Source: Microbulbifer sp. ALW1 (GTDB taxonomy: Bacteria; Pseudomonadota; Gammaproteobacteria; Pseudomonadales; Cellvibrionaceae). Taken from it: 64,000 nucleotides of DNA. The translations under genes and the position numbers were made by a program. This document shows positions 26,819 to 53,657 of this stretch, in pieces (within the stretch, counting starts at the first letter, position 1; the number at the start of each line of letters is the position of its first letter). The DNA is taken from assembly GCF_009903625.1 (NCBI RefSeq), contig NZ_CP047569.1:4510501-4574500 (forward strand). Reading direction: 5' to 3'. The notes beneath the pieces are model-generated. The model was not told the DNA's origin. It was given only the letters and a program-made list of their open reading frames with translations, and did not search any database.

Positions 26819-28579
26819 TTATTTCACCGCCTCCAGCAGTACCAGATCGTAACCGGTATCCAGTGTTACCGCGCCATTCACCACGGTGGCCAGAGTTCCG
26901 GAATAAGCATCGCGCACGGTAATCCCCTCGTTAAATACACCGGCCGCGGGAATTGTTTTCTCTCCCGGCAATTGCTCCAGCGCGACCAGTACCACGTCAT
27001 CTGCCAGTGTGCGGGAAAACACCAGCGGCGTCTGCTGCTGGACCCGATGTGCGCCGGCACCCAGTGAAGGGTGGGCGCGGCGGAACTGTAGTAGCTTCTG
27101 CCAGTGGACCAGCAGCTGCTGAGTTTCCGGATTGGCGAAATCCTGCCAGTTCATGGGTGAGCGCAATTGTGCATCGTAGATCGCCGCTGCGTCGGTCAGT
27201 AGACGGCCGGTCTCGTCCCCGAAATAGATCTGCACAGCACCGGGGGCCAACACCAGCTTGGTGGCGGACTCGAAGGTACGACTGCGGTCTCGGTCGAAGC
27301 TTTCCAGATCATCGTGAGAACTGATGTAATTCAGTACCCCTGCGCCCTTGAGATTTCCCGCCACAAGATCGTCTGCGTACTGCTGAAATAAATCCGCAGG
27401 GGTCTGCTCCGCCTGGTGCACAAACCCCATATTGATCAGACTGTCGAAACCGTACTGGTAAAAGTCCACCTTGCGATCACCGAAGTCGAACTGACGTCCG
27501 TCGCTGTTCCAGAAGTTGTCCACTCCGAACCCGTACACTTCGCCGAGCATAAAAAATGGCTTATCGTCGATTTTTTTGTCCGGGTTCTGTTGTTTCCACT
27601 GCGACAGCGCTTCGCCCGCCTCCAGTTTCAACTCTGCCCAGAATTCCGGCTCCACATGCTTGGCGGTGTCTACACGAAATCCATCCACGCCATATTCCCG
27701 CACCCAATCGGTAAGCCATTTCAGGAGATAGTAGCGAGGCGCACGCGGGTGAGCGGTGCGCGCAAAAAAAGTATCCAGCTGGGCAATTTCCTGATCCAGT
27801 CTTCCTTCCTGCCGCCACTTTTCCTGCAGGAACGGCGGCAACTCGACGGCATCATCACTCTCCGTGCGAATGTCTGGCAGATGGTCGGTCAGGGTACAGG
27901 TGACATTACCGGCAAATCCCGACCAGTCGCACACCGGCGCGGTGCGCACCCACTCCGTCGGCCACAGCGGGTCCTGGGCGGTCTCAGGTCCGGTGTGATT
28001 GGCAATAACATCCAGCAACACGCGAATGCCCTGGCCGTGGGCGGTGTCGATCAACTCCTTCAGGTCCGCCTCGCTGCCGAAATTGGCATCCAGCGCGGTC
28101 CAGTCTTTCGGCCAGTAGCCATGATAGGCATAGGTGCGCCCGGAAGCCTCCAGGTACCCGTGGATATTTTCCACCAATGGTGACATCCAGATGGCGTCGA
28201 TGCCGAGCGCGGAAAAATAGCCCTCGTTCAGTTTGTTGATCACGCCGCGCAGATCACCGCCGAGGTATCCGCGCAGTGGTGCGCCGTCGGCCTGGCGTGT
28301 GTAGGCCAGATCATTGGCGGTGTCCCCGTTGTTGAAACGATCCGGCAACAGGAAATAGATACTCGCATTGCGCCAGTATGGATCGACGGCAATCTCCGGT
28401 AGCGGCTCGGGCTGGGGTTCGGGTTGAGGTTCGGGCTGGGACGACGGTGGTGCACCGGTGTTTCCACCAGCAGCGCCACCACCGCCGCCACAGCCTGCAA
28501 CGAATACTGCCAGCGCCAACAGCGGAACCAGTGCCCACAGCGGTACAAGTGCCACGAACGAATACTGCTTTACTACCAT
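26819..28579 (-). CDS. MalS-like GH13 alpha-amylase lipoprotein
   Basis: A 586-residue GH13 enzyme with a lipobox (LAVFVAGCGGGG) and a Pro/Glu/Gln linker (PEPQPEPQPEP) before the barrel. Catalytic residues: Asp about 304 (GVDGFRVDTAKH), Glu about 347 (MLGEVYG), Asp about 423 (ISSHDD). The YFLLPDRFNNGDTANDL and YHGYWPKDW segments resemble the periplasmic MalS group (GH13_19). A close paralogue of the same length is at 37494-39254. It is the last gene of an operon with the DUF1552 and cytochrome-fusion genes; the spacing to the upstream gene is 16 bases. It should cut maltodextrin or starch at the membrane surface. Confidence 0.92.
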   Translation of the reverse strand: MVVKQYSFVALVPLWALVPLLALAVFVAGCGGGGGAAGGNTGAPPSSQPEPQPEPQPEPLPEIAVDPYWRNASIYFLLPDRFNNGDTANDLAYTRQADGAPLRGYLGGDLRGVINKLNEGYFSALGIDAIWMSPLVENIHGYLEASGRTYAYHGYWPKDWTALDANFGSEADLKELIDTAHGQGIRVLLDVIANHTGPETAQDPLWPTEWVRTAPVCDWSGFAGNVTCTLTDHLPDIRTESDDAVELPPFLQEKWRQEGRLDQEIAQLDTFFARTAHPRAPRYYLLKWLTDWVREYGVDGFRVDTAKHVEPEFWAELKLEAGEALSQWKQQNPDKKIDDKPFFMLGEVYGFGVDNFWNSDGRQFDFGDRKVDFYQYGFDSLINMGFVHQAEQTPADLFQQYADDLVAGNLKGAGVLNYISSHDDLESFDRDRSRTFESATKLVLAPGAVQIYFGDETGRLLTDAAAIYDAQLRSPMNWQDFANPETQQLLVHWQKLLQFRRAHPSLGAGAHRVQQQTPLVFSRTLADDVVLVALEQLPGEKTIPAAGVFNEGITVRDAYSGTLATVVNGAVTLDTGYDLVLLEAVK

Positions 28580-28595: not shown

Positions 28596-30020
28596 TTAGA
28601 CAGCTCCGCCCGACCAGTGATTTTCCGGCAAACTGTTTACCCCCAGATAGCGAGCCACATCCCCGAACAGTTGGTGAGTGCCATAAATACGCTGACTGTT
28701 GTTGATGCCGTCACCGCAATTGATGATGCGGCCCATTTGCAGCGCACCGCCGGCGCCACCCGCCAGGGTAACGGCACCGGCAGCACCACCGTGTTTGGAA
28801 CCGTCGCCCACTTCGGAAAACATCACTACCAGGGTGTCGTCCAGCAGGCCTTTGTTTTCCAACTGCTGCAGGGTGTACGCGAGTAGTGAGTGATACCAGC
28901 GCACCTGCGCGGTATGGGGTACGTCGCCGGGGCGGTGGGAGGCGCTGTGACTGGCGAATTCGTTGTACCAGCGGGTAATGGAACCGACCGTGCCACTTGT
29001 ACTGTTGTGCTGAATACCCTGGCTGATGGCATCCTGCGCCATCTGCCAGCATTCGTCGTAGGAGTAGTTCACCAGATTGCCGTTTTCATCGCCCTTGGAA
29101 AGCTGCAAGGTGGCGACGCGGTGCAGTCCGCAGGAAAAGGCACCGACAATATTGTCCACCTGCGCCCTCGCCAGATGCGGGAACATTTGCCACTCGGTGG
29201 GCGATAGCGGACTGGAGGAGGCGTAATAGGGATCCGTCATTACGTTGGTATTGAAACTGCACTCACCCACCTGATTACCAGCGAGATCCCGCAGCCGTTT
29301 CAGCGCATTTTCGTGCAGCGTGAGTTTATCCCGCTGCGCGTTTTCCAGAGTGACGTCTGCCAGGCTATCGAAATCATTCAGAATGGCCTCGTAGTAGGCC
29401 TGCTTATCCGGGTCAGCACTGCCGCCAGCCCCTCCACCCGAAATGCCTACCGCCAGTTTTTGTGCGGCATCTGCCGGATCATTGTTTGGAATTGGTCGCT
29501 CCGCGGAATCCACGTTGCGCGGTTTGGAAATCATGATGTCGGAGCGGTTACCGGTGCGCACACCGAGGCTCAGTACACCTTCATTGCCCAGCTGCTCGGC
29601 AATCAAATGATCGATACTGGCACTGCCATAACTGATGCCATTGTTACCGGTAAGAATCCCGCGCATATCGTTGTAGTGAGCGCCAGCACCATCACCAATA
29701 TCCAGGGTCAGGTTCTGCAGCACAATCAAGCGATTGTGCCAGGACGACAGCGGCCCTAAACCAAAGCTCAATTCCTGGCTGCCACTGATGCTGCCCGGCC
29801 CCTGGTTGGGCAGCCAGTTATAAGGCACAACACCGTTGGGGTAGTAAAGAAACAGCACCCGCTGCGCGCCACCGGTCTGGGCGAATACGCGCTGGCCGAG
29901 CATGCTGCCTGCAAGCGGCAACAGCATTCCCGTTTGCGCCAGATTGCGCAGAAATTTTCTGCGCGACTGGCGGGAGGATTCATTGACCGAGGTGAAACCG
30001 AATTTATTGAAGAATTTCAT
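28596..30020 (-). CDS. DUF1552 protein with Tat signal
   Basis: A 474-residue exported protein. The Tat motif SRRKFLRNLAQTG (twin arginines) is followed by a hydrophobic segment and a cleavage site near RVFAQ. The body matches DUF1552 (LFLYYPNGVVPYNW, HNRLIVLQNLTLD, VMFSEVGDGSKHGG), a family of unknown function that commonly sits beside DUF1592/1588-type cytochrome proteins, as it does here, 12 bases downstream of the cytochrome fusion. The Tat route implies folding, perhaps with a cofactor, in the cytoplasm before export. It may be a redox or oxidase partner of the neighbour; that is inference. Confidence 0.85.
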   Translation of the reverse strand: MKFFNKFGFTSVNESSRQSRRKFLRNLAQTGMLLPLAGSMLGQRVFAQTGGAQRVLFLYYPNGVVPYNWLPNQGPGSISGSQELSFGLGPLSSWHNRLIVLQNLTLDIGDGAGAHYNDMRGILTGNNGISYGSASIDHLIAEQLGNEGVLSLGVRTGNRSDIMISKPRNVDSAERPIPNNDPADAAQKLAVGISGGGAGGSADPDKQAYYEAILNDFDSLADVTLENAQRDKLTLHENALKRLRDLAGNQVGECSFNTNVMTDPYYASSSPLSPTEWQMFPHLARAQVDNIVGAFSCGLHRVATLQLSKGDENGNLVNYSYDECWQMAQDAISQGIQHNSTSGTVGSITRWYNEFASHSASHRPGDVPHTAQVRWYHSLLAYTLQQLENKGLLDDTLVVMFSEVGDGSKHGGAAGAVTLAGGAGGALQMGRIINCGDGINNSQRIYGTHQLFGDVARYLGVNSLPENHWSGGAV

Positions 30021-30032
30021 TATTGTTATCTC

Positions 30033-33000
30033 CTAACGGCGCAGGGTGAAAGCATCGGACAAAACGAGCGTCCGCAGCATGTCGCGCATACCGCCGCCAT
30101 TGCGCAGGTCTTCACTGGTGGAGTGAATGATCACATCGTCACTGGCGCCCTCTTCGCGGCCGACTACGTAGCGGTAGAACTGCCGCGCAAAACAGGCCTC
30201 ACCCTGGTCACTGCCAGCGATCAGGCCGGCCAGTTCCGGCACCGAATAAAAATCGTAACTGGGGCTGGTGGGATCCATTACCGTCGCCGGCGTGTACAGG
30301 CTCTTGATACTGCCGCTGTCATCGATCTCCCGCTGTTCACCGGTACCGATGGTTTCGATGGTGCGATACAGGGCATCACTGCCAAAGCGCTCGAAGCCAA
30401 AACCGACACCATCGATAAACTGGTGACAGGCGGCACAGGCGGGATCGGAGGTGTGACGTGCAGTAGCTTCGCGGTTGCTGTCGGTATCCTCAAACACCAC
30501 GTTGAAGTCCGCGGCCGCCGGCGGTGGGAACTCCTGGCACATCAGCACTTCACGCACATAGACACCGCGTTTGATCGGCGCCGGGTTCACGGTGCTGGTA
30601 CGGGAGGCGAGGAAGCTGCCATGGCCCAGCAGGCCGCTGCCGCTGCGCGGATCACCGGACGGGAAAGTACGCATGGCCCAGTCACTGCCGCTGGTATCCA
30701 GACCGTAATGCGCAGCGAGATCACCGTTGGCCCAGGTGTAATTGGCCGAAAGCAGTTCACCAAAGGCGGCATTGGTGCGAATGTTCTCCAGCACAAAGCC
30801 CACGGTTTCTTCCTTGAAAGCCGCCACCAGGTTGGTATCGGTGATAGCCGGGAAGGGATACTGATTGTTGATCAGCCAGCCACCGATAAACCGGCGCAGA
30901 CCAAGTTCCGCACGGGAGTCCGCCAACAGGCGATCCACCTGCGCAGCCACATCGAAGTTTTGCTCGGTCGCGGCCAACAGCAGAGTGTCGTCCGGTGTAG
31001 TGGCCCAGAAGGTATACGACAGTAGTGTCGCCACTTCGTAGTTGTCGAGCCGGTAGAGTCCGCTCTCGCTGTCCAGCACACCCAGTTCGGAGCGATACAT
31101 AAAGTGCGGCGACATCAGCATTGCCTGCAAAGCCAGACGGCCGTCGTCGTCGCTGCTGTAGAGCCCGGTGTAGCGGGAAATCTCTGCACTCTGCAGCGGA
31201 CGACGGAACAGGCGGAAGCCGAGGGTATCCACCACACACTGCACATCGCCACAACCACTCACCAGGTTCATGAAACCGGTTTGCCCGATGGCGAGTTCCG
31301 CCACCTGCTCGGCCACCATCTCATAACCCAGGGTCCGATCGTTACCCGCAGAAAGGTAAGACGCGGTGTCGAAGTTGCGGTAGCGCCCGTCGGCAGGAAC
31401 CGGGTTCATCAGTGAGCTATCGAAATCGATTCCGAAAATATCGCGCACACTGTTGAGGTATTCCTCGCGGGTGAGCAGGCGCAGGTTGCGCTGATCCAGG
31501 TTGCTACCATCGCAGTCACTGCCACTACAGTTGCCGCTGCTCCAGGCCTCTTCCACGATCAGCCTCGCCACTTCATAGGCGCAGGCACCGGCCTCATCGC
31601 CGGTACAGTTGGCGGCGGCGTCCATGGGCATGAAGTCTTCGATGTACTGGGTAAGGTCCCCGAGCTGCCAGTTGGCGCCCTTGCCCGCCAGTGCCAGGGC
31701 AACCGCGCCCTGGCCCTGATCGCCATGGCAGCTCGCACACTGGGCCGCATAAAAGTTCTGCCCGGCCTCGTATTCATTGGTTGCACTGGGGAAGAGCGCC
31801 ACCAGGGAAAGGTCGTGTTGCGGGATCAGCAACTGCACCTGCGGCAGCGATGGATCACTCACGATATAGGGCGAAGCATCGCCGCTCCAGCCACCAAACA
31901 CAGTGCCCAGCGGCGCGTCATCGGCATTGACGGTAATCACACTGCCGATGGAGTAGTCGCGCCCGCCGTCGGCAGTGGTACCGCCGATCACGGAAACCCG
32001 CGAAGTGTCGCCGCCAACGGGGCCGTCCGGTGTCCACGGCTCCCAGGCGCCGCCGACAAAACTGGCAGACTCGTCGATATTCCGCTGGTCTCCGGTCTGC
32101 TCACCATTGTCATTATTGAACACCAAATTGATCTGGCCGTTGTGGAGATCTTCCTGTTCCACCGAGTGTGTCCACCAGCCGTCGGCATCGGGCCCACTCA
32201 TCAACAGCCCCGGCCACTGGGTCAACGGCTGATCCTGGCCGTCGACGGTTACCCACAGGTGTACATAAACCTGCTCCCAGTTATCCGGGTTGTCATAACG
32301 CAAACGGATGCCATCAAAGCCTTCTTCCAGAGTGAGCGACGCGGTGAATTCACCGATAATTGCTTCCACAGTAACGGCACCGGTGCCCGTGCGGGTGACC
32401 AGGCCAGTCTGATCAACACTGGCGGGTCCGCTGGCGATGGACCAGCTGACCTGCCCGAAAATATTCTCCCGGGTACCATCGGCGCGAAGCCCCACCGCAA
32501 CAAGCTGGCGACTGCTTTCCAGTAATTGTCCCTTGGGAGCGATTTCCAGTCCGGTGATGGCGGTATCGATGGAGGTCACCGAAATGGTCAGCTGGGCACT
32601 GAAGCCCCCCTGCTGCACAGTGACAATAGCGGTACCGGTATTGCCGGCGCGCAGCACAAAGTCATCACTACCTACCGACTCCACCGCAAGCACATTGCCG
32701 TTGCTGGAGCTCACGCTGGGGGCATTGGGTACTGGCGCGGTAAAGCCGTTGTCGTACAGGGAGTAGACCTGCACGGTCATTGCATCGCCGCCGTTCAGAC
32801 GGTCACTGCCGGCATCCAGCTGAATACCTACCTGCTGTAAACCGGTGCCGTCGATCCACTCACGGAACAGCGCTTCCGCCACCGGGTTGGTATACCGGGT
32901 GCCCTTCGGCATGCGGTTGTTGTCAGTGGTCTGGTAGATATACACCAGGCTGCTGGCGTGATCGAAGGGACGCAAACGGGCGGCACCACCGGTGGTTTCC

Positions 33001-35690
33001 ACATTGATCAGACGCATATCCCCGAGTGGGGTGTCGTAGCGCAGATCCATAAAGCTGCTTGCGTGACAGTGGGAACAGTTGGTTTCGAGGTAGGTCCGCG
33101 CGCGCTCGTCGAGATCTTCGCTGGTGTCGGCTGCATCAACAAATTTGTCGTGGTTATCGGAACTGCCGATGTCCTCGGATAGCAGCGCGATGGTATTGAA
33201 CACGTCCAGCTGATTGGCAATCGAGGTATCGCTTTCGCCGTACTGGAATTGCCGGTTCAGTTGACGGGTGTGCACCGCCAGGGGCTCGCGACTGCCACTT
33301 CCTATGTGGCAGGATCCGCAGTCGGCGGCTGACTGCACAGCCCGCTGACGGCTTTCAATGCCGCCGTCCACCACTGTGAGGGTTTCGGTCACCAGGTCAG
33401 CGTCGGTACCGGCGCTGTTCCAGTAATAGTTGGCCGCCTGCCACTTGCCAGTATCCTGGCGGAACAGTACGGACGTGGTAAACGGTTGTTGCGGATTGCC
33501 TGCGGTGGCGATGCTCTGGTGTTTTACCAGCACGGTGCCGATTGGCAGATCCCATTTATTGGTCTCATCAAATTCGATCTGTTCGTTGTTGGGCACCGCG
33601 ATAAAATGTCGCAGCGCCGAACCGTCGAACCAGCCTTCGGTGTTGAGCGCATATTCGATAACACCACTCACCGGCTCAAGCGTTTGCAGATCGGCGAACA
33701 ATCCGGTCTCGGAGAGCTTGGCCGGGATCACCGCCGCTTCCGCATCGTCGTCCACCACTTTGTAAATGGTGGACTGACCGCCGTACTCCACACCGTAGGT
33801 AGCGACGAGCAGAGTATCGCCGCTCAGGTCAGTGCCGAACGAAGCGATATTTTCCGGGAAGGCTTCACTGATCAACTCCTTAGCTTCGCCATCCACAATG
33901 GACCAGATACGCTTGGTAACATAGTCCCCAAAAACAAAGTGGCCACTCAGCCCCGGCAGGTTATCGCCTCGATACACCACGCCGCCGATGATGGAAAAAC
34001 CGGTGGGGTGCGCGTAGCCATCCCGCGGCGGTTCGAAATCGGTACTGCAATTTTTACCGGGATCACCGCCAAGGTCACCGCGGTTGTTAGTGCCTTCGCA
34101 CACCGGCCAGCCGTAGTTGTTACCCTTTTCGATCAGGTTTACTTCCTCAAAGCCGGCTTGGCCCACTTCGGTTTCCCACAGGGTGTAAGGCGCTTCGGTA
34201 TCGAAACTCCAGCGCCAGGGATTGCGGTGGCCGTAGGACCAGATTTCTTCACGGAAACCGGGCACGCCGACAAACGGGTTGTCCGCCGGGATTTCGTAAT
34301 ACTTACCGTTGACCGCCTGCTCCACTGGTTTGATACGGATAAAGCTGCCCAGCAGGTTGTCGGTTTCCTGTGCGCCATTGTTGGTGCGCGGGTCTTCCGG
34401 ATAACTCATGGTGGCGCTGTGGCCGTAAGCGCCGTCGCCAATACCGAGGTACAGGTAGTTGTCTTCCGGGTGGAACTGCATCATGCCACCCTTATGATCC
34501 GGCCCACGTTGGGGTACCCGCAGGATTTCCGTGCGCGAAGAGACCAATACCTGAACTGGATCGTTCGGGTTATCCACGGTCCAGCGCTCGAGAACCCCGT
34601 CGCCATAACTGCCATCGGGCGCGCGCTCGTTGTCGTCAGTGCCGTGAATGTAATAGATATAAATGTGGCCGTTGCTGGCGTAGCCCGGATCAAAGGCCAT
34701 GCTCAACAGCCCCTGTTCGTGGTAATTGCGTACCTCGCCGTTGATATTCAACAGCTCGCGGATTTCCCCCGGCGCCACATCCTCGCGATTGGGAAAAACA
34801 AAAATGCTCCCGGTTTTATCCACCACATACAGCAGGTCATTGATGCCATCCGGAATCACCATCACCGGGGACATAAACTGGCCCTGCAGGTTCGGGTAGG
34901 CCACCTCGAAACGGTAGTTTCCGCCGGATACATTGCCGCTGATCGGGAAGTTCAGCGACTGTGCCAACAGTGGCCGTGTGCTCGGAGGAAGATCTTCATC
35001 CGTTTCTTCATCCAACCCACACACCGCCGCCGGCTGCCACTGATTGTCGATGTAGCAGGGATTACCGCTGTACAGAAGATCCGCCGTCTGCGCGCCACCA
35101 TTGTCATTGAAGATGACATTGAGCGAATCCGGCATAACACCGTTATTCAAATGTGCGGTGAAGTCATAGCAGTAGTTTCCCGCGGACTCTGTCATCGCCA
35201 CACCTGGCCAGCCGGGAAGGTTGTTCACACTGCCGGCAGGGGTTGGGTTCCAGAAGTAAATATACGGGGCCGCATAATTTGGGGGGTTGTCGAAGCAGAT
35301 ACTGGTTGAGGTGCCTTCGGGCGGTGGCTCGACAATTTCCGTGACCGTGATGGCCTTGCTCGCATCATCAAAAGTGATTCGGTAATGACCATTTTCCAGC
35401 AGGTAATCATTGGCCGGATAGGCTTCATCCCAGTTCTGGTAGTGGCTGATTTTGAAGCGCGGATTGGCGTTATCAAAGGTCTGTTCGGTGACCCAGACGC
35501 CGGTGCTGGCGTCGTAGGTCATCGCCGTAGAACCCCAATCGTTTGGGGTACCGCGGAACCAGGCTTCGGACCAGGATTGCGCACTGGCAACGAAAGGCAG
35601 GGCAAACAGACATACCAACGCGACACAGACACGCAGGCAAACGGCAGCAACGGAGTGTAACACTCCGGCTTTCACGGGGGCAGAAATCAT
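30033..35690 (-). CDS. Giant starch-module/sugar-dehydrogenase-like/multihaem cytochrome fusion
   Basis: A 1885-residue exported protein with a signal peptide cut near FVASAQ. Parts in order: an RGT-N-x-W starch module like that of the secreted amylase (about 40-120); a CBM26-like module (about 130-215, ICFDNPPNY, NLPGWPG); a PQQ-type sugar/sorbosone dehydrogenase-like propeller (about 250-650, HEQGLLSMAFDPGY, YGHRNPWRW); a diheme domain resembling the SO_2930 family with CGSCH (about 791) and CSHCH (about 871); a bacterial Ig-like region; a second CBM26-like module (about 1140-1235); cytochrome c CASCH (about 1317); and DUF1595/1592/1588/1585-type domains with CAACH (about 1752). Electron flow from sugar oxidation to haems is inferred. 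It heads the operon behind a MalT-like box. GGAG precedes the ATG. Confidence 0.88.
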   Translation of the reverse strand: MISAPVKAGVLHSVAAVCLRVCVALVCLFALPFVASAQSWSEAWFRGTPNDWGSTAMTYDASTGVWVTEQTFDNANPRFKISHYQNWDEAYPANDYLLENGHYRITFDDASKAITVTEIVEPPPEGTSTSICFDNPPNYAAPYIYFWNPTPAGSVNNLPGWPGVAMTESAGNYCYDFTAHLNNGVMPDSLNVIFNDNGGAQTADLLYSGNPCYIDNQWQPAAVCGLDEETDEDLPPSTRPLLAQSLNFPISGNVSGGNYRFEVAYPNLQGQFMSPVMVIPDGINDLLYVVDKTGSIFVFPNREDVAPGEIRELLNINGEVRNYHEQGLLSMAFDPGYASNGHIYIYYIHGTDDNERAPDGSYGDGVLERWTVDNPNDPVQVLVSSRTEILRVPQRGPDHKGGMMQFHPEDNYLYLGIGDGAYGHSATMSYPEDPRTNNGAQETDNLLGSFIRIKPVEQAVNGKYYEIPADNPFVGVPGFREEIWSYGHRNPWRWSFDTEAPYTLWETEVGQAGFEEVNLIEKGNNYGWPVCEGTNNRGDLGGDPGKNCSTDFEPPRDGYAHPTGFSIIGGVVYRGDNLPGLSGHFVFGDYVTKRIWSIVDGEAKELISEAFPENIASFGTDLSGDTLLVATYGVEYGGQSTIYKVVDDDAEAAVIPAKLSETGLFADLQTLEPVSGVIEYALNTEGWFDGSALRHFIAVPNNEQIEFDETNKWDLPIGTVLVKHQSIATAGNPQQPFTTSVLFRQDTGKWQAANYYWNSAGTDADLVTETLTVVDGGIESRQRAVQSAADCGSCHIGSGSREPLAVHTRQLNRQFQYGESDTSIANQLDVFNTIALLSEDIGSSDNHDKFVDAADTSEDLDERARTYLETNCSHCHASSFMDLRYDTPLGDMRLINVETTGGAARLRPFDHASSLVYIYQTTDNNRMPKGTRYTNPVAEALFREWIDGTGLQQVGIQLDAGSDRLNGGDAMTVQVYSLYDNGFTAPVPNAPSVSSSNGNVLAVESVGSDDFVLRAGNTGTAIVTVQQGGFSAQLTISVTSIDTAITGLEIAPKGQLLESSRQLVAVGLRADGTRENIFGQVSWSIASGPASVDQTGLVTRTGTGAVTVEAIIGEFTASLTLEEGFDGIRLRYDNPDNWEQVYVHLWVTVDGQDQPLTQWPGLLMSGPDADGWWTHSVEQEDLHNGQINLVFNNDNGEQTGDQRNIDESASFVGGAWEPWTPDGPVGGDTSRVSVIGGTTADGGRDYSIGSVITVNADDAPLGTVFGGWSGDASPYIVSDPSLPQVQLLIPQHDLSLVALFPSATNEYEAGQNFYAAQCASCHGDQGQGAVALALAGKGANWQLGDLTQYIEDFMPMDAAANCTGDEAGACAYEVARLIVEEAWSSGNCSGSDCDGSNLDQRNLRLLTREEYLNSVRDIFGIDFDSSLMNPVPADGRYRNFDTASYLSAGNDRTLGYEMVAEQVAELAIGQTGFMNLVSGCGDVQCVVDTLGFRLFRRPLQSAEISRYTGLYSSDDDGRLALQAMLMSPHFMYRSELGVLDSESGLYRLDNYEVATLLSYTFWATTPDDTLLLAATEQNFDVAAQVDRLLADSRAELGLRRFIGGWLINNQYPFPAITDTNLVAAFKEETVGFVLENIRTNAAFGELLSANYTWANGDLAAHYGLDTSGSDWAMRTFPSGDPRSGSGLLGHGSFLASRTSTVNPAPIKRGVYVREVLMCQEFPPPAAADFNVVFEDTDSNREATARHTSDPACAACHQFIDGVGFGFERFGSDALYRTIETIGTGEQREIDDSGSIKSLYTPATVMDPTSPSYDFYSVPELAGLIAGSDQGEACFARQFYRYVVGREEGASDDVIIHSTSEDLRNGGGMRDMLRTLVLSDAFTLRR

Positions 35691-36081
35691 CGCTATGCTC
35701 CGGGAGTTATTTTTATCCGGATGGCCGCCCTACGTTTTGTGGGCGACTTTTAATTATTCGCTGAAGAGCGCTTATATTTATTCGCTGAAGGGCTCCCAGC
35801 GGCTTTGGTGCTGATGCCGCATTTGCACAGGATCAAATTACGCTGTTACGAGGGGATTGCCTCCTCCCTCCCCGGGGCGTAGTAGCTCCAAGTGCCAGAA
35901 ATTTGACTGATCGCACATCATCGAAGGGAATTGGTCGGACCGAAAATCAGCAGAACAAAGCCCGGCCGGTACAAATAGATGAAACGCACCGGTCCGAAGA
36001 AAATTCAGTCCAGAATAAGGAAAATTACGTGAATTGATCAACGCTCGGCAAGACATCTCGCCAGAAGATTCGTAATGCAGG
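35691..36081. other. Gene-free promoter region of cytochrome-fusion operon
   Basis: This 391-base stretch has no credible gene. It contains the MalT-like box at 35860-35885 and two copies of TTATTCGCTGAAG (about 35755 and 35780) between that box and the start codon. The rest, next to the end of the diguanylate cyclase gene, shows nothing recognisable. Confidence 0.6.
35860..35885. promoter_or_regulatory. MalT-like composite box of cytochrome/amylase operon
   Basis: CCTCCTCCCTCCCC directly followed by GGGGCGTAGTAG. Both the sequence and the 14-base offset between arms equal those at 10581-10606. It lies about 170 bases upstream of the giant fusion gene, placing that gene in the alpha-glucan regulon. 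Confidence 0.65.
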
Positions 36082-37248
36082 TTAGGCCGGCTCGACTCGT
36101 AGGAGCCCGCGCCGCTCACGACAAAAAAAGTGGCTCTGATTGCGCCCGTGATTCTTCGCCGCATACAGAGCCGTGTCGGCATCCTGAATTACTTGATCCG
36201 GACTGGGTGCAACTTTCGCCTCCATAGTTGTACCTCCAATACTCGCAGTTATCTGTCGGAGGTTATCCGGACGTCCCTGATGAGGGATGGCACACTGGGC
36301 GATGGCCTGGTGCAGGTTATTTGCCATTACGGTCAGCTGTCTGCTATCCGTGTTTGGTAGCAACAGAGCAAACTCTTCACCGCCATAGCGTGCCAGCAAC
36401 TCGCCACTTCTATGCACACACTGACTTATTGCATCACTGACCAGCCGCAGGCAATGATCGCCTGCCACATGGCCATGGTGATCGTTGTACGCCTTGAAGT
36501 AGTCAATATCCAGCAATAGCAGGGAAAGCGGCAGGCCGTTGCGCGCGGCCCGATTCAGCTCAGCCTGCAATGATTCATCAAAATGGCGACGGTTCGACAG
36601 TCCGGTAAGTCCATCTTGTAAAGAAAGCGCACGCAATCTGATGTTCAGCTCGATCGAGCGCGCAATTGACCGGTGCACAGGCAGAAACGCCAGTAAAATC
36701 ACTACCGCGTATACCGAAAGCGCCATGGCGAGCACGTAGGACTGGTATGTGCCAGCACTGATTAGGAAGCCGATGCCGGGGACAACGGTAGGAAGGAAAA
36801 AAGCGAACAGCGTCTTGGGGTCCGCTGCATAACCGACCACTGCACAGGCACTCAGCCCCATCACCCACATGCTCACAACCGGTGAGTAAGTGGGATCGCC
36901 TGCCGGCACAAAGGCGAACCATGCGAGACCGTACAGGCTTCCCTGAAGCGCAGACATCATTGCAAAGTAGCGCTGCCAGCGCCCACAGTCTGACAAATCA
37001 TCCGCATTCCGTAGATAAGCGAAGTACAGCGGTATCCGCACAAAAGAGACAGCTACAAGACTGCACAACCAGAGCACCAATTGAACGCTTGATGCCACCC
37101 CCCAAAAGCCCGCAATTAGCAGGGCACCGGCAACGGGGTGGCTGATTGCCAGCGTCCAGGTGTGCTTATAGACACTGGCCACTCTTTGAGCCCGGGCCTG
37201 TTCTTGCTGGCTTTTATGGTCGGCAGACATACAAGCTAATTTCGTCAT
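36082..37248 (-). CDS. Diguanylate cyclase (GGDEF), membrane-bound
   Basis: A 388-residue protein with about six membrane segments (residues about 30-190) and a C-terminal GGDEF domain. The active site is complete (LARYGGEEFALLLP), so it should make cyclic di-GMP. The inhibitory site five residues upstream reads R-S-G-E instead of R-x-x-D, so feedback inhibition may be weak. ATG 37248 or 37230 is preferred; an in-frame ATG at 37392 lies next to the terminator of the upstream amylase and cannot be a sensible start. I see no direct link to the starch genes. Confidence 0.88.
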   Translation of the reverse strand: MTKLACMSADHKSQQEQARAQRVASVYKHTWTLAISHPVAGALLIAGFWGVASSVQLVLWLCSLVAVSFVRIPLYFAYLRNADDLSDCGRWQRYFAMMSALQGSLYGLAWFAFVPAGDPTYSPVVSMWVMGLSACAVVGYAADPKTLFAFFLPTVVPGIGFLISAGTYQSYVLAMALSVYAVVILLAFLPVHRSIARSIELNIRLRALSLQDGLTGLSNRRHFDESLQAELNRAARNGLPLSLLLLDIDYFKAYNDHHGHVAGDHCLRLVSDAISQCVHRSGELLARYGGEEFALLLPNTDSRQLTVMANNLHQAIAQCAIPHQGRPDNLRQITASIGGTTMEAKVAPSPDQVIQDADTALYAAKNHGRNQSHFFCRERRGLLRVEPA

Positions 37249-37355
37249 GGATTCTGTTGTCACAATTGTCAGGAGTAACAACAGGTAGATCAATGGCTGG
37301 GCCGGCCATGATCCCTGACAGATATCACAGACTTCGCATAAGCATAATGACAGGC

Positions 37356-37388
37356 AAAAAAAAGCCGATACCAGAAGTCCTGGTATCG
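37356..37388 (-). terminator. Rho-independent terminator of second amylase
   Basis: On the minus strand CGATACCAG, a five-base loop and CTGGTATCG are followed by GC and a run of eight T. It lies 106 bases after the stop of the amylase at 37494 and before the diguanylate cyclase. Confidence 0.85.
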
Positions 37389-37417
37389 ACAAGCCTTTCG
37401 ACGAGAAAGAGAAGATT

Positions 37418-37493: not shown

Positions 37494-39254
37494 TTAGCGC
37501 GCGCTCAATTCTGTAGATTCAATCGCACCCAATAGCAGGGTGTCGAACTCGGTATCAAACGTGAGGGAGCCGTTTTCCACCCGGGCCTCGGCGCCGGAGT
37601 AGTAATCTTTCACCAAGGTGCCCTCGGCAAATACCTCACCAGTATTCACGGACTTTTCGCCGACTGACATATCCAGTGCGACCAGCACGCGATCTTCGTC
37701 CAGCGTGCGGGAGAAAATATACGGTGCTTCGCTCAGCTGCTTGTGTACACCGGCACCTACAGCTACGTGGGACTGACGGAACTGTCCGAGTTTCTGCCAG
37801 TGGCTCAGAATCTCACTGGTCTTTGCCTGCTCAATGCTGCTCCAGTCCATCGGCACACGCATGGAAGCATCGCCGTAAGCCTGCTCATCAATCATCGGGC
37901 GGGCAATTTCGTCGCCGTAATAAATCTGCGCAGCACCCGGGGCCAGCATCAGTTTCAGCGCGGCACTTTTCACCTGTTTGCGCTCGCGGTCAAACGAGTG
38001 GTGGTCGTCGTGGGAGCCCAGGTAATTCAGTACGGAAACGCCTTCCAGCTCGCCGCCGTGCAAAATGCTGGAGTATTCGCTAAAAATACTTTCCATATCC
38101 TGAGACGCGTGTGCAGCGAAGCCCATGTTGATCAGACTGTCGAAACCGTAGTCGAAGAAGTCCACCTTACGGTCGCCGAAATCGTATAAACGGCCGTCAC
38201 TGCTGGCGAAATCCTTCACACCGTAGTGGAAAACCTCACCCACCATAAAGAATCCGCGATCATCCAGTTTCTCTTGTGGGTTGTTCGCCTTCCACTCTTC
38301 CAGTGCGATACTCGCTTCCTTCTTGAGTACAGCCCAGATTTCCGGCTCCACGTGTTTTACGGTATCTACGCGGAAGCCATCCACACCGTATTCGCGCACC
38401 CAGTCGGTAAGCCATTTGACGATGTAGTATTTGGGCGCGCGCGGATAACCGGTGCGCTCGAAGAAAGCGTCGAGCTCGGCTACTTCCTGCGTGAGGCGAC
38501 CTTCGCGCTGCCACTTCTCAGTGAGCTGTGGCGGCAGCTCTACGGGTTTTTCGCTCTCAGTCAGAATATCTGGCAGGTTGTCGGTCAAGGCGCACTGCAC
38601 GTTCTGGGCAAAGCTGCTCCAGTCACATTGGGGGTTGGTGCGCACCCAGTCCGACGGCCACAGGGGGTCTTCACTGGTTACCGGCCCCGTATGATTGATG
38701 ATCACATCCAGCAGGATACGCACACCCTTGCTGCGGGCGACCTGGATCAGCTCGGCCAGCTCATCTTCGGTACCGAAGTTTTCGTCCACATTGGTCCAGT
38801 CCTTGGGCCAGTAGCCGTGGAAGGCATAGGTGCGCTTGTCTCCCTCATCGAAACCGTGCACGTTTTCGATGATCGGCGACATCCAGATGGCATCCACACC
38901 CAAGTCGGTGAAGTAGCCTTCTTCCAGTTTCTGGATCACACCGCGCAGGTCACCGCCAAGGAAACCGCGCATATAGGCCGCGTCGTTTTTGCGACCGTAA
39001 GCCAGGTCATTATCCGGGTTGCCGTTGTGGAAGCGATCCGGAAGCATGAAATAAATGGTGGCGTTGTTCCAGAATTGGTCCGCCGCGCTCGACTTGACAT
39101 GAGTCAATACAGGGGCCGCCGTTTCCGGCGATGATGCGGCCGCCTGAGTATTCTCCCGGGCGCCAGCTGCAGAAACAGACTCGCTATCGGAACAGGCGCT
39201 GATGGTCAGTGCCGCTGCGGAGATCAGGGCTGCCAAACCGGTCATTTTTCTCAT
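37494..39254 (-). CDS. MalS-like GH13 alpha-amylase lipoprotein (paralogue)
   Basis: A 586-residue GH13 lipoprotein (lipobox LTISACSDS) closely parallel to the enzyme at 26819-28579, with matching blocks such as SDWVRTNPQCDW against TEWVRTAPVCDW. The catalytic residues are Asp about 297 (GVDGFRVDTVKH), Glu about 340 (MVGEVFHYG) and Asp about 416 (LGSHDDHHS). The linker after the lipobox is Ala/Ser-rich rather than Pro/Glu-rich. It is monocistronic: a MalT-like box lies 68 bases upstream and a terminator follows. Two membrane-anchored paralogues with separate promoters suggest division of labour, for instance over chain length or location. Confidence 0.92.
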   Translation of the reverse strand: MRKMTGLAALISAAALTISACSDSESVSAAGARENTQAAASSPETAAPVLTHVKSSAADQFWNNATIYFMLPDRFHNGNPDNDLAYGRKNDAAYMRGFLGGDLRGVIQKLEEGYFTDLGVDAIWMSPIIENVHGFDEGDKRTYAFHGYWPKDWTNVDENFGTEDELAELIQVARSKGVRILLDVIINHTGPVTSEDPLWPSDWVRTNPQCDWSSFAQNVQCALTDNLPDILTESEKPVELPPQLTEKWQREGRLTQEVAELDAFFERTGYPRAPKYYIVKWLTDWVREYGVDGFRVDTVKHVEPEIWAVLKKEASIALEEWKANNPQEKLDDRGFFMVGEVFHYGVKDFASSDGRLYDFGDRKVDFFDYGFDSLINMGFAAHASQDMESIFSEYSSILHGGELEGVSVLNYLGSHDDHHSFDRERKQVKSAALKLMLAPGAAQIYYGDEIARPMIDEQAYGDASMRVPMDWSSIEQAKTSEILSHWQKLGQFRQSHVAVGAGVHKQLSEAPYIFSRTLDEDRVLVALDMSVGEKSVNTGEVFAEGTLVKDYYSGAEARVENGSLTFDTEFDTLLLGAIESTELSAR

Positions 39255-41436: not shown

Positions 41437-42930
41437 TTAGCGGCGTCCGGCCAGAAACTGTGTGTGTGGAGGCAGTTGTTTAACGGTGCCCTGCACCAGG
41501 GTTTTCAGGCTCTGCAAAAGGTCCTGAAGTTGGGTTTCGGTAAGTTTGTCCGCGAGAGTGTGATAGTCCTCAGGTATCAAACCCTGGCCAATCAGCACCT
41601 GCTGCCATGCCGCTTCGGTAAACAGGTCTTCATAGTCCCGAAAAACCTTGCCGGTCGCGCGAAACAGCTCCATCTTCGCCTGAAGAGAATCCGGAACTGA
41701 CATTTCTTCGCAGGCTTGCCAGAAACCGCCATCGCGGCGCTGGTTAGCCTTGTAATGCAGAATGATGAAGTCGCGGATTCTTTCCATTTCAACTCGTGAC
41801 TGGCGATTGAATTCCGTAACCTCCGCGGCGTGAATACCACGATGGGGAAAACACTTGATCAGCCTTGTCGCCGCGGACTGCACCAGGTGAATAGACGTTG
41901 ACTCGAGTGGCTCGAGAAACCCGCTCGCCAAACCGAGGCTCACCACGTTTTTATTCCACTGTTGCTTGCGGTGTCCAGTGCGGAAAGGAATCACCCGCGC
42001 ATCCGCCAGCGGCTCGCCCGGCAGATTGGCAAACAATGCCGTCCTGGCCTGCTCATCGCTCCAGTGGCTACTGGAATACACCATGCCGTTACCGGTGCGG
42101 TGCTGCAGGGGAATTTGCCACTGCCACCCAGCCGCATGGGCAATGGAGCGAGTATACGGCGGCAGCTGATCGGTCGAGGTACTGGGTACGGCAATCGCGC
42201 GGTCGCACGGCAGCCACTGTGCCCAGTTTTCGTATTCGGTGTGCAGGGTTTTATCAATCAGCACACCGGCAAATCCAGAGCAGTCGACAAACAGGTCGCC
42301 CTCAATCACTCCCCCACTCTCAAGCAACAGCGCTTCCACAAAGCCGGTGTCGCCATTCTGACGTACCTCAGCGACTTTGCCCTCCACACGCTTAACGCCC
42401 CGCTCCTCGCTGTAGCGACGCAGAAACCGGGCATAGAGCCCGGCGTCAAAGTGGTAGGCGTATGCAATCCCTTCCAGATTGGTGTTGGGAATTCGAGCCA
42501 GTGGCGCAAAACGGTTGTTGATCGCCGCCTGGTAGTTCAGCGAGTAATCCCAGTAACTGGACTGATCGCCCTGGGCACGAGCTCGCAGCCAGCAGTGGTG
42601 AAAGTCACAGAAAGGAAGATTTTTGCCGATGGCACCGAAGGCGTGCATATAGCGCTCACCTTCACGGGACCAGTTTTCAAACTGGATCCCCAGCTTGATG
42701 GTGCCTTTGGTTGCCTGGAGGAATTCCTGCTCATCCAGCCCCAGCGCACTGTTGAAATTGAGAATCGGCGGGATGGTGGCCTCCCCTACCCCGACCGTAC
42801 CGATCTGGTCCGACTCCACGAGGGTAATATCCACGGTCGAGGCCATGGTGCGCGCCATCAGCGCCGCGGTCATCCAGCCGGCAGTACCGCCCCCCAGAAT
42901 AACCAGCCGTTTGATTTTTCCGTCTTCCAT
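41437..42930 (-). CDS. Tryptophan-halogenase-family flavoprotein
   Basis: A 497-residue FAD-dependent monooxygenase-like protein of the tryptophan-halogenase family. It has the dinucleotide-binding motif GGGTAGWMTAA, VGVGEATIPPI (GEATIPP in place of the usual GES-x-P), the TKGTIKLGIQF segment with the candidate catalytic lysine, and WQWQIPLQHR, the W-x-W-x-I-P signature. Such genes are very common beside TonB receptors of carbohydrate loci in proteobacteria, where their true substrate is unknown. Here it follows the maltodextrin-type receptor by 96 bases on the same strand, so it is probably co-transcribed. ATG 42930 removes a poorly supported 15-residue extension. Confidence 0.88.
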   Translation of the reverse strand: MEDGKIKRLVILGGGTAGWMTAALMARTMASTVDITLVESDQIGTVGVGEATIPPILNFNSALGLDEQEFLQATKGTIKLGIQFENWSREGERYMHAFGAIGKNLPFCDFHHCWLRARAQGDQSSYWDYSLNYQAAINNRFAPLARIPNTNLEGIAYAYHFDAGLYARFLRRYSEERGVKRVEGKVAEVRQNGDTGFVEALLLESGGVIEGDLFVDCSGFAGVLIDKTLHTEYENWAQWLPCDRAIAVPSTSTDQLPPYTRSIAHAAGWQWQIPLQHRTGNGMVYSSSHWSDEQARTALFANLPGEPLADARVIPFRTGHRKQQWNKNVVSLGLASGFLEPLESTSIHLVQSAATRLIKCFPHRGIHAAEVTEFNRQSRVEMERIRDFIILHYKANQRRDGGFWQACEEMSVPDSLQAKMELFRATGKVFRDYEDLFTEAAWQQVLIGQGLIPEDYHTLADKLTETQLQDLLQSLKTLVQGTVKQLPPHTQFLAGRR

Positions 42931-43026
42931 CCGAAACACCTGTACCCGGAATACAAAGAAAAAAGGCCCTTGCAATACGGGATCGCAAGGGCCTTTTGCC
43001 TGAGAGGCTAGTCTATCTGGAAGGCA

Positions 43027-45878: not shown

Positions 45879-45928
45879 TCCTCCACCCCCAAGGGGGAGG
45901 AGGGGGGAGATGCTGAGGGCCGTAGAGG
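45879..45928. promoter_or_regulatory. MalT-like box array of TonB receptor
   Basis: TCCTCCACCCCC (45879-45890), GGGGAGGAGG (45894-45903, a full match to the MalT-box core), GGGGGAGATG (45903-45912) and GGGCCGTAGAGG (45917-45928) lie close together 66-115 bases upstream of the receptor start. Confidence 0.65.
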
Positions 45929-47151: not shown

Positions 47152-47183
47152 GGGGGGAGGAGGCGCCAGCAGGGGGAAGTAGC
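47152..47183. promoter_or_regulatory. MalT-like direct repeats upstream of glk
   Basis: GGGGGGAGGAGGCG (47152-47165, containing GGGGAGGAGG) and GGGGGAAGTAG (47172-47182), about 20 bases apart in direct orientation, 145 bases before the glk start. The spacing of direct repeats resembles known MalT arrangements. Confidence 0.6.
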
Positions 47184-48847: not shown

Positions 48848-48884
48848 AGCAGATCAGCGAGCCACCCCGGTGGCCTGATCTGCT
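48848..48884. terminator. Convergent hairpin, AraC and lipase-chaperone genes
   Basis: AGCAGATCAG/CTGATCTGCT and an inner GCCACC/GGTGGC form a two-part stem at the junction of the convergent genes, overlapping the last codons of the chaperone. No U-run follows, so the role is uncertain. Confidence 0.4.
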
Positions 48885-49756
48885 TCCGCCAGGCGCTGGG
48901 CCTCGGCACTGCCCAGCAGGCGATTGCGCAGGGCAAAGACTTCCTCCTCGCTGGCACCTCCTGCCCGCATTCTCGCCACCCGCGCAGCCAGTACCTGTTT
49001 TGCCAGGGGGGAATCCATCCGGCTAGCGGTATCATTGAAGGCCGCCTGCAGCTCCGACAAACGCGCCCGGCGCGCCTCCTCCGTGAGATTTTCATCCCGG
49101 GCCACCGCAAAGGCCGAGGTCATGTAGGGCAATTGCGCCTCTTCTTCCGCAAACAGTTTGCCCGCCGCCTCTTCCCCCAGGTATGTCCGCCGCAAGGCCA
49201 CTAGCTGGTCATAGCCCTGCATCGGGTCAGTGGTGTGCGGCGATCGGGCCGCGTGCACATCCAGCTCAGCGCGGCGATAGGCGGAATACTGACTGGTCAA
49301 TTCCATCAGCTGCAGGGCGATACCCGCTGGCAGCGCTTCTTCCAATAGCTGGCGTAACTGGGCGACGGCGTCAGCATCCGCGTCCGGCCCCAGTGCGGCT
49401 TCCATTGCCTGCAACGCGGCGAGGGTATTGCGGTCAAGCAGCAGGGATTCGTCCGCAGAAAAATTCAGGGCCAGTAGTGCATCGTAAACAGGCAGCGTGT
49501 CAAACGGGACGTCTGCCGACTCTACTTGTGCCTCGACTGCCGCCACGGCATCCACGGTATTCGCCACTGCCACTTCCCCTGCGGCCGCCGGTACATCCGG
49601 TTGCACAATCGCTTGCGACTCTGCAGCAAGCGCCTGATTCACTGCCGCAGCACTATCTATCGCAATTTCTGGCTCGGCCGCATCGCCGGCAAAGCCCGCG
49701 GCAATCACAACAGCCGCAATAAATACAATAACCGCACAGGTAATAAAAATTTTCAC
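48854..49756 (-). CDS. Lipase-specific chaperone (LifO/Lif-like)
   Basis: A 300-residue protein with one N-terminal membrane anchor (FITCAVIVFIAAVVIAAGFAG), an Ala/Val/Glu-rich flexible linker (about 30-95) and a helical domain. RRTYLGEEAAGKLFAEEE and the surrounding arrangement match PF03280, the membrane-anchored foldases that help secreted lipases fold in the periplasm; the DNLTEEAR-RARL segment near the end supports this. The usual partner, a LipA-type lipase, is not adjacent. Instead the neighbour across a 348-base gap is a PETase/cutinase-like hydrolase, so the client is uncertain. Confidence 0.82.
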   Translation of the reverse strand: MKIFITCAVIVFIAAVVIAAGFAGDAAEPEIAIDSAAAVNQALAAESQAIVQPDVPAAAGEVAVANTVDAVAAVEAQVESADVPFDTLPVYDALLALNFSADESLLLDRNTLAALQAMEAALGPDADADAVAQLRQLLEEALPAGIALQLMELTSQYSAYRRAELDVHAARSPHTTDPMQGYDQLVALRRTYLGEEAAGKLFAEEEAQLPYMTSAFAVARDENLTEEARRARLSELQAAFNDTASRMDSPLAKQVLAARVARMRAGGASEEEVFALRNRLLGSAEAQRLAEADQATGVAR

Positions 49757-50104
49757 ACAGTTACCCTTCAGGTAATCGAAAAATAATTCGCGAATAGCGA
49801 CCGGTTAAAAATCGCTGATCCGAAATGTCTGCGCAAGAGAATTTCATACAGCAACGCAATGGATTCAACGCCAGTGTGACAGCAGAGGACCTTAACGCGG
49901 CTTTTTGGTGCTTTATGTGCTTTCTGGCCAGGGGCTTCACAACCTAATCTGACCCAGCTCGCGGCACGCCAACTCATACAACTATTTTTCAAGAGCACTG
50001 TATCCGAGAGCGCTGTTTGTCATAACGCAGTTTTTTATGGCCACAGGGGCCAGGTTGAATTCGGCCGAGAATAAATCCAATCAATTGAGGCAAATACGAT
50101 AGTG
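49757..50104. other. Gene-free divergent promoter region
   Basis: This 348-base gap between the divergent chaperone and hydrolase genes is AT-richer than its surroundings. I see no gene, clear repeat or recognisable operator in it. Both promoters must lie here. Confidence 0.5.
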
Positions 50105-53375: not shown

Positions 53376-53657
53376 GTTTTCTCTCGCATTGCGTGTTGAT
53401 AAATCCTGTTTTTCGCGCGCGCAAAAATCCTGTCCGCCAAAAGCAGCCATAAAAATGCAAGCAAACGAAATAACAGGAAAAAGAGAACAGCGGGTACCGG
53501 GAACTGCGGCAGGCTTCTATCTGAAAGAAGGCAGCCTCGCGGCATGCGCTGAAATGCAGGGTCAGCGCAGGATTAACATTACCCGCTGGTTGTTTTGAAC
53601 CACCGGCGCCACACCCTTCTGGGTAGGGCGCAGCGCCGGCACTTCAAATCATCGAGA

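What the first reader, a model, noticed from the sequence alone, without database searches (positions are those of the whole stretch)
30033..35690. Starch-module/sugar-dehydrogenase/four-haem cytochrome fusion in an amylase operon
One exported 1885-residue protein combines an amylase-type RGT-N-x-W module, two CBM26-like modules, a PQQ-type sugar dehydrogenase-like propeller, a diheme domain, a cytochrome c and DUF1592/1588 domains, with CxxCH at about residues 791, 871, 1317 and 1752. I know of no characterised enzyme with this combination. With a MalT-like box upstream and an amylase in the same operon, it may oxidise starch ends or released sugars and pass electrons to a respiratory chain or extracellular acceptor. 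This would be an oxidative route beside hydrolysis.
Basis: partly seen in the sequence, partly recalled or inferred. Interest (0 to 1): 0.85.

Follow-up and report, generated by a model that had tools for sequence, protein, structure and literature searches.

The report
Starch-binding four-haem sugar-dehydrogenase-like protein
A marine bacterium encodes a large, probably exported protein with starch-binding modules, a sugar-dehydrogenase-like propeller and four haem sites, next to a constant partner gene; it looks like the starch version of poorly understood cellulose-linked redox proteins and could help show what those proteins do.

Summary
The gene lies on the MINUS strand (35690 to 30033, 1885 aa, Microbulbifer-type genome): signal peptide, two CBM26, GSDH propeller, diheme domain, X183-like cytochrome c, then the PSD/PSCyt3 (X132) region; four CxxCH. 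It is not a one-off: 102 of 120 listed homologous clusters carry CBM26+GSDH+PSD4, 101 of those with exactly four haem motifs, 4 with an alpha-amylase in the same chain. The Cellvibrio japonicus relative is apparently Cbp26A, reported as starch-induced (among other polysaccharides) but, in what I saw, not analysed as a redox protein. So this is a starch variant of the Cbp2D/Cbp2E/TERTU_3803 kind. PQQ use is open: catalytic-type His, Arg and Asn are kept, but YliI's RxRD dyad is gone and none of 31 carrier genomes has PqqC. Best reading: a starch-tethered sugar oxidoreductase passing electrons through its haems to the X132/DUF1552 unit or beyond. Binding, cofactor, direction and acceptor are inferred, not shown.

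The parts
30033..35690 (-). Whole gene, 1885 aa starch-binding multihaem protein (Cbp26A-like)
35577..35690 (-). Signal peptide, about residues 1-38, no lipobox
   Evidence: read by eye, no predictor run; lipobox pattern not found
35337..35573 (-). N-terminal RGT-N-x-W module, about residues 40-118; identity uncertain
   Evidence: X25_BaPul_like E 0.043, below cut-off; recurs in homologues
35076..35300 (-). CBM26 module 1, residues 131-205
33894..34859 (-). GSDH six-bladed propeller, residues 278-599; conserved His399, Arg489, Asn490, Gly510
32850..33725 (-). SO2930/TIGR03806-like diheme domain, residues 656-947
   Evidence: below the family cut-off; CxxCH 791 and 872
33306..33320 (-). Haem motif 1, CGSCH, residue 791
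33063..33077 (-). Haem motif 2, CSHCH, residue 872
32022..32309 (-). CBM26 module 2, about residues 1128-1223
   Evidence: two CBM26 stretches; borders by eye with positions
31584..31775 (-). X183-like cytochrome c, residues 1306-1369, haem motif 3 CASCH at 1318
   Evidence: (7b21, 8q1v)
30048..31481 (-). PSD3-PSD5-PSD4-PSCyt3-PSD2 (DUF1587/1595/1592/1588/1585, taken as the X132 region), residues 1404-1881
   Evidence: no clear solved-structure match outside X183 (inconclusive)
30423..30437 (-). Haem motif 4, CAACH, residue 1752
28596..30020 (-). DUF1552 (HXXSHH) partner, 474 aa, Tat-type signal SRRKFL (by eye)
26819..28579 (-). GH13 alpha-amylase with lipobox-like signal (586 aa, signal by eye), third gene in the row
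37494..39254 (-). Upstream GH13 alpha-amylase paralogue; directly upstream of the gene in eight other Microbulbifer loci examined
35860..35869 (-). MalT-box-like site AGGGAGGAGG, 1 mismatch, about 180 nt upstream of the start codon

Best explanation
It is the starch-targeted member of a family of exported, carbohydrate-anchored, multihaem redox proteins. The CBM26 modules hold it on starch or maltodextrin beside amylases (modules shown by profile; binding inferred). The propeller, which keeps the sugar-dehydrogenase catalytic His/Arg/Asn and a calcium-site glycine, oxidises sugar ends, probably to a lactone (inferred), with exogenous PQQ or another cofactor. Electrons pass through the two haems of the diheme domain and the X183 cytochrome to the X132/PSD haem domain, which works as one unit with the separately Tat-exported DUF1552 protein (gene pairing shown; chemistry unknown), and from there to a soluble or surface acceptor. 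In Microbulbifer the gene is probably switched on with the maltose/starch regulon.
For: Domains. Exactly four haem motifs in 101 of 102 full-architecture clusters, spacing 73-84 between haems 1 and 2 and 427-461 between 3 and 4. In the 46-row alignment A1: H399 46 of 46, R489 46 of 46, G510 46 of 46, N490 44 of 46; E325 40 of the 40 close rows, 2 of the 6 distant ones. HHIP has lost the R and N (alignment). Fold match to aldose dehydrogenases 3a9g, 2g8s, 3das (TMt 0.81-0.84, E 4.9e-21 to 6.7e-21). GH13 in the same chain in 4 of 102 clusters (two of the four verified). An amylase lies upstream in 9 of 9 Microbulbifer loci examined (of 13 same-genus carriers), in the window with a GGDEF gene between. 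DUF1552 downstream in 27 of 27 distinct loci and beside 18 of 18 sampled cousins. 4 of 13 scanned cousins carry a gluconolactonase-type SGL propeller beside GSDH, as expected if GSDH makes a lactone. MalT gene present; a MalT-box match within 200 nt upstream in 8 of 9 Microbulbifer loci, 6 of them exact, against 9 of 159 400-bp window tiles with a match. Starch induction of C. japonicus cbp26A stated in PMC12542752 (passages).
Against: No PqqC in any of 31 carrier genomes, and 13 of the 31, this one included, also lack a match to YliI. YliI's RxRD dyad was found by pattern in 0 of 111 proteins, the query included. The best fold and profile hit is HHIP, a non-enzyme (recalled). The T. turnerae pf08450-X173 propeller, of another Pfam family but in a cousin protein, showed neither PQQ binding nor glucose dehydrogenase activity (PMC10916295 section 2.5). 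cbp26A is also induced by cellulose, mannans, xyloglucan and fungal necromass, so it is not starch-specific in regulation. One Microbulbifer locus (L015) has no MalT-box match. Outside Microbulbifer only 2 of 18 distinct loci show a match to the window's amylases nearby (other amylase types would be missed).
Confidence: 0.45

Rival explanations
1. The propeller is a pseudo-enzyme or binding module (as in HHIP), and the protein is a starch-anchored electron conduit whose haems take electrons from, or give them to, other partners.
For: HHIP is the top structural and profile match; RxRD found in 0 of 111 proteins; a propeller of another Pfam family in a cousin had no PQQ binding or activity (PMC10916295); no PqqC in the 31 carriers.
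Against: H399, R489, N490 and G510 stay nearly invariant, whereas HHIP lost R and N. The fungal sugar dehydrogenase CcSDH also lacks several bacterial PQQ-binding residues and is still PQQ-dependent (PMC4133262 passages). 85 of 96 genomes with a YliI match also lack PqqC, so lack of synthesis is weak evidence.
Confidence: 0.22
2. X132/PSD plus DUF1552 is the real catalytic unit (a haem and probably metal-dependent oxidoreductase acting on glycans); CBM26, propeller and diheme are targeting and electron-supply modules.
For: DUF1552 pairing in 27 of 27 loci and 18 of 18 sampled cousins with other front ends; invariant charged residues and an invariant haem motif in the X132 region over 44 rows; exchangeable front modules.
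Against: No activity known to me for either family; fold and haem ligands unresolved (inconclusive); DUF1552 was not modelled and has no PDB sequence match.
Confidence: 0.18
3. It donates electrons to a lytic polysaccharide monooxygenase, like the proposal for Cbp2D.
For: [quoted passage not shown] the same cytochrome fold is present here.
Against: The one LPMO_10 gene found in this genome has a GbpA_2 (N-acetylglucosamine-binding) domain and no CBM26; TtX183 domains did not drive a TtAA10 (PMC10916295 outline and conclusions); starch LPMOs (AA13) are known from fungi (recalled).
Confidence: 0.08
4. It serves extracellular or periplasmic respiration or redox protection at the polysaccharide surface, without oxidising sugar itself.
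For: Multihaem architecture; the authors of PMC10916295 raise long-range electron delivery for cousins (conclusions).
Against: Starch modules and lactonase-bearing cousins point to carbohydrate chemistry. Porin-cytochrome partners were not searched for.
Confidence: 0.07

Closest known systems
Cellvibrio japonicus Cbp26A (P0009 taken as this protein: its source name is cut, but PMC12542752 lists a single CBM26 Cbp in C. japonicus)
   Same: 63% identity over 87% of the query, same order CBM26-GSDH-PSD, four haem motifs
   Different: Four CBM26 stretches instead of two; in the passages read it appears only as an up-regulated carbohydrate-binding protein
C. japonicus Cbp2D/Cbp2E and T. turnerae TERTU_3803/TERTU_2913
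   Same: Secreted type; X183 cytochrome plus X132 back end (X183 structures 7b21 and 8q1v matched); CBM in all but TERTU_2913
   Different: Cellulose-type CBMs (CBM2, CBM10); X158/YceI, X122 or pf08450-X173 front ends instead of CBM26-GSDH-diheme
Coprinopsis cinerea CcSDH (AA12-AA8-CBM1)
   Same: Sugar-dehydrogenase propeller, cytochrome and CBM on one exported chain (PMC4133262 abstract and passages)
   Different: Fungal, one haem b, cellulose CBM1, shown PQQ-dependent; X183, X132 and DUF1552 not mentioned in the passages read
Planctomycete-specific PSCyt/PSD proteins
   Same: PSD/PSCyt domains, CBM fusions, conserved neighbouring unknown gene families (PMC5615132 passages)
   Different: Described in PVC bacteria and predicted periplasmic or cytoplasmic there; CBM26 and GSDH not named in the passages read
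E. coli YliI / Acinetobacter sGDH
   Same: Propeller fold, catalytic-type His, Arg, Asn
   Different: Short dehydrogenases without CBM or haem domains (recalled); YliI has RxRD in the last blade, absent here

Membership tests
Cbp2D/TERTU_3803-type CBM-redox proteins | Export signal plus CBM | tested here: met
   signal peptide read by eye; CBM26 1.4e-34
Cbp2D/TERTU_3803-type CBM-redox proteins | X183 c-type cytochrome | tested here: met
Cbp2D/TERTU_3803-type CBM-redox proteins | DUF1587/X132 back end with CxxCH | tested here: met
   PSD3 2.2e-13, PSCyt3 7.5e-23, CxxCH 1752; no X132 profile was at hand, the equation with PSD domains is mine
Cbp2D/TERTU_3803-type CBM-redox proteins | Cellulose-directed CBM2/CBM10 | tested here: not met
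   only CBM26 found; hence a starch variant, not a Cbp2D orthologue
PQQ-dependent soluble sugar dehydrogenase (sGDH/Asd) | Six-bladed GSDH propeller | tested here: met
PQQ-dependent soluble sugar dehydrogenase (sGDH/Asd) | Catalytic His, Arg-Asn, calcium-site Gly (sGDH numbering recalled) | tested here: met
PQQ-dependent soluble sugar dehydrogenase (sGDH/Asd) | RxRD dyad in the last blade, as in YliI | tested here: not met
   0 of 111 proteins by pattern, N-I-A-S here; its role in PQQ carboxylate binding is recalled
PQQ-dependent soluble sugar dehydrogenase (sGDH/Asd) | PQQ binding and sugar oxidation | not testable with these tools
   needs purified protein
AA12-AA8-CBM1 (CcSDH) | AA8 cytochrome b domain and CBM1 | tested here: not met
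   neither among the Pfam hits; c-type CxxCH instead
AA12-AA8-CBM1 (CcSDH) | AA12-type propeller sequence | not tested
   no comparison with CcSDH itself was made
TIGR03806 SO2930 diheme cytochrome | Score above the curated cut-off | tested here: not met
   149.5 against 313.3 bits, though aligned over 2-312 of 314 positions
Alpha-amylase | GH13 catalytic domain in this chain | tested here: not met
   absent here; listed in 4 of 102 homologous clusters (two verified)

The most novel reading that the evidence does not exclude
X132/PSD with DUF1552 is a previously unrecognised glycan-oxidising machine, fitted with exchangeable front ends, and this protein is its starch edition: a bacterial oxidative route for starch that uses neither an LPMO nor a classical PQQ enzyme, with a non-standard cofactor in the propeller.
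Probability: 0.22. Interest if true: 0.85.

Novelty: new variant of a known kind. Interest (0 to 1): 0.55.

Why it matters
[quoted passage not shown] that DUF1552 is one of those neighbours is my inference. Here a PSD/DUF1552 pair sits in a Microbulbifer-type genome with a single PSD4 match and a clear expected substrate, so one deletion could give a readable phenotype; C. japonicus, with the apparent homologue, already has deletion genetics (PMC12542752 passages). If the protein oxidises maltodextrins, bacteria would have an oxidative starch route beside hydrolysis, and a starch counterpart to the fungal dehydrogenase-cytochrome-CBM proteins.

Tried and rejected
LPMO partner: one LPMO_10 match in the genome, with a GbpA_2 domain and no CBM26, so a starch LPMO partner is unlikely. 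MalT box by chance: the single window site is not significant; recurrence upstream in relatives is what keeps it. PqqC: the own-genome search had no positive control; the family search gave one (11 of 144). PqqC absence as proof against PQQ: rejected, because 85 of 96 genomes with a YliI match lack PqqC too. RxRD loss as proof against PQQ: rejected, because CcSDH lacks several PQQ-binding residues and works. The one paper found for Arg406/Arg408 (PMC1781467, passages) places them beside the sugar site of sGDH and does not state a PQQ contact, so that role stays recalled. PDB sequence match for DUF1552: none up to E 10. PDB fold for the X132 region: no Foldseek match at E 0.001 or better and the VIA rows sit on X183; inconclusive, since X132 was not folded alone. 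RGT module as a known amylase module: not confirmed. Starch RNA-seq paper PMC10714805: no CBM26 or cbp in the main text (further passages); supplements could not be looked up, so starch induction rests on the statement in PMC12542752. Print searches for this protein or combination: searches listed 2, 1, 0 and 0 papers, none with a redox analysis of it in the passages read. PMC2754498 and PMC7789669 were seen in listings only.

Full report
OBSERVATION. The reading frame is real, on the minus strand, 35690 down to 30033, 1885 residues without a stop. Pfam gives two CBM26 stretches, a GSDH propeller at 278-599, a cytochrome c at 1306-1369 and the series PSD3, PSD5, PSD4, PSCyt3, PSD2 from 1404 to 1881, all over cut-off. 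NCBIfam gives the diheme domain at 656-947, below that family's own cut-off. CxxCH motifs stand at 791, 872, 1318 and 1752. The RGT-N-x-W module is a sub-threshold X25-like match only.

GENOME AND NEIGHBOURS. The window lies in a 4.68 Mb single-contig genome whose closest named protein is from Microbulbifer (90% identity to Microbulbifer sp. HZ11). Downstream on the same strand follow DUF1552 (12 nt gap) and a GH13 amylase. By eye, DUF1552 bears a Tat-type signal SRRKFL and the amylase a lipobox-like signal. Upstream lie a GGDEF protein, a second GH13 amylase, an esterase, a tryptophan-halogenase-family protein, a TonB receptor and a glucokinase.

A FAMILY, NOT A ONE-OFF. The search scored 7990 candidates and gave 123 proteins, 120 listed. 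Of the 120, 102 carry CBM26, GSDH and PSD4 together (counted by hand from the table; P0034, P0035, P0105 and P0107 lack one of the three and are not counted). Of the 102, 101 have exactly four haem motifs and one has five, with tight spacing within each pair; 5 of 102 have a lipobox-like start. Named sources include Microbulbifer, Cellvibrio, Gilvimarinus, Marinagarivorans, Agarilytica, Colwellia, Catenovulum and Corallincola. Four of the 102 list GH13 in the same chain (P0027, P0033, P0043, P0051), checked for P0027 and P0043. In 144 genomes of the same family-rank group I count, from the listed rows, 31 with both halves of the protein in one open frame (at most three candidates per genome were scored and not all matches are listed, so this may be a lower bound). 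G024, split over contigs, and the fragment in G054 were left out.

THE PARTNER. In 28 loci examined DUF1552 lies directly downstream on the same strand in all. L017/L060 and L018/L059 are the same contigs, so these are 26 distinct loci, and with the window 27 of 27. Identity to the window's DUF1552 falls to 25-28% in ten of the loci (L061-L068, L070 and others of that kind). I then took 18 of the other PSD-bearing places listed: DUF1552 follows on the same strand in 18 of 18, GSDH matches upstream of the PSD part in 11 of 18, and the diheme piece of this protein matches in none at E 1e-4. I scanned 13 of these 18 with Pfam: CBM2 in 9, malectin in 4, SGL (gluconolactonase-type) beside GSDH in 4, YceI in 2, F5/8 C in 1, CBM26 in 0; L097, L100, L101, L109 and L111 were not scanned. 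So an X183-PSD back end plus DUF1552 recurs with exchangeable front ends, and this protein is the starch edition. Frames matching only the propeller-diheme part, most of them 722 to 908 residues long, also occur in many of these genomes, so the protein looks like two redox units joined. This genome has one PSD4 match, this gene.

THE PROPELLER. AlphaFold2 gives mean pLDDT 88 and pTM 0.61 for residues 236-955, so the relative placement of propeller and diheme domain is uncertain. Foldseek's best matches are HHIP (9.7e-25, TMt 0.67) and then aldose dehydrogenases 3a9g, 2g8s and 3das (4.9e-21 to 6.7e-21, TMt 0.81-0.84). In the 46-row alignment, residues equivalent to sGDH His144, Arg228, Asn229 and Gly247 (numbering recalled) are conserved: H399 46 of 46, R489 46 of 46, N490 44 of 46, G510 46 of 46; D419 is Asp in 42 and Glu in 4. 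HHIP keeps the His but not the Arg-Asn (alignment). The last-blade RxRD of YliI is N-I-A-S here and was found by pattern in 0 of the 111 proteins (query included) in which the GxRNP-type anchor was found; 10 of the 121 proteins lacked that anchor and were not counted. Against over-reading this: CcSDH lacks several bacterial PQQ-binding residues yet is PQQ-dependent (PMC4133262, abstract and passages). The negative PQQ result for TERTU_3803 (PMC10916295 section 2.5) concerns a PF08450-X173 propeller, another Pfam family, so it bears only indirectly on this one.

PQQ SUPPLY. PqqC is found in 11 of 144 genomes and in 0 of the 31 carriers. YliI matches (E 1e-30 or better) occur in 96 of 144 genomes, in all 11 PqqC genomes and in 18 of the 31 carriers, but not in this genome; the four other GSDH places of this genome lack RxRD. 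Since 85 of the 96 also lack PqqC, scavenging of PQQ is plausible in this group; the cofactor is open.

REGULATION. A MalT gene scores 3.2e-262 in this genome. A MalT-box match with at most one mismatch lies within 200 nt upstream of the gene in 8 of 9 Microbulbifer loci including the window: six exact, the window with one mismatch, L020 with one mismatch on the other strand, L015 none; control 9 of 159 400-bp tiles of the window. The nine are related, so this is not nine independent events, and 4 of the 13 same-genus carriers were not examined. PMC12542752 states that cbp26A is up-regulated on starch, plant mannans, xyloglucan and cellulose (passages); PMC11497827 lists it on fungal necromass (passages).

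THE BACK END. X183 matches the solved Cbp2D and T. turnerae domains. The X132 region is modelled with mostly high confidence (mean pLDDT 87 for the whole C-terminal piece) but has no clear solved match, which is inconclusive. In C. japonicus a cbp2E mutant grew more poorly on filter paper than the lpmo10B mutant (PMC12542752, passage), so the kind matters physiologically.

MECHANISM. Shown here by computation: domains, conservation, gene pairing, amylase linkage. Inferred: starch binding, sugar oxidation to a lactone, electron path diheme to X183 to X132, acceptor, and role of DUF1552. The lactonase-type domains in GSDH-bearing cousins fit a lactone product. A type II secretin is present, and a secretion mutant (gsp) of C. 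japonicus could not grow on starch (PMC10714805 passages), so export to the outside is possible but not shown for this protein.

NOVELTY. The kind is known (Cbp2D/Cbp2E, TERTU_3803). The starch variant appears in C. japonicus as a named carbohydrate-binding protein, but I found no analysis of it as a redox protein (open-licence library only).

Noticed in passing
window 45894-45903 and 47154-47163: Exact MalT-box matches GGGGAGGAGG near the 5' ends of the TonB receptor and glucokinase frames; a third exact match lies at 10581-10590. Suggests a maltose/starch regulon across this locus.
   Followed up: partly
window 41437-42975: Tryptophan-halogenase-family protein (PF04820, 8e-195) beside the TonB receptor; the pair recurs in several Microbulbifer loci and in one other same-family locus, L057.
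   Followed up: partly
window 36082-37392: A GGDEF diguanylate cyclase gene lies between the upstream amylase and the studied gene; in eight other Microbulbifer loci the amylase match ends about 330-470 nt before the gene start.
   Followed up: partly
window 51129-63045: Cluster of GH16, GH3 and F5/8-type-C proteins, a beta-glucan-type set near the starch genes.
   Followed up: no
window 48854-51013: Lipase-chaperone gene and a PETase-like hydrolase gene side by side, on opposite strands.
   Followed up: no
L008 43-7389, own genome: A 2449-residue frame with a GSDH propeller (residues 86-406) followed by PKD, LamG and cadherin-like repeats; its propeller also lacks RxRD.
   Followed up: partly
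L096, L099, L102, L108: CBM2 proteins joining GSDH, a gluconolactonase-type SGL propeller, a cytochrome c and the PSD back end in one chain, a possible dehydrogenase-lactonase pair.
   Followed up: partly
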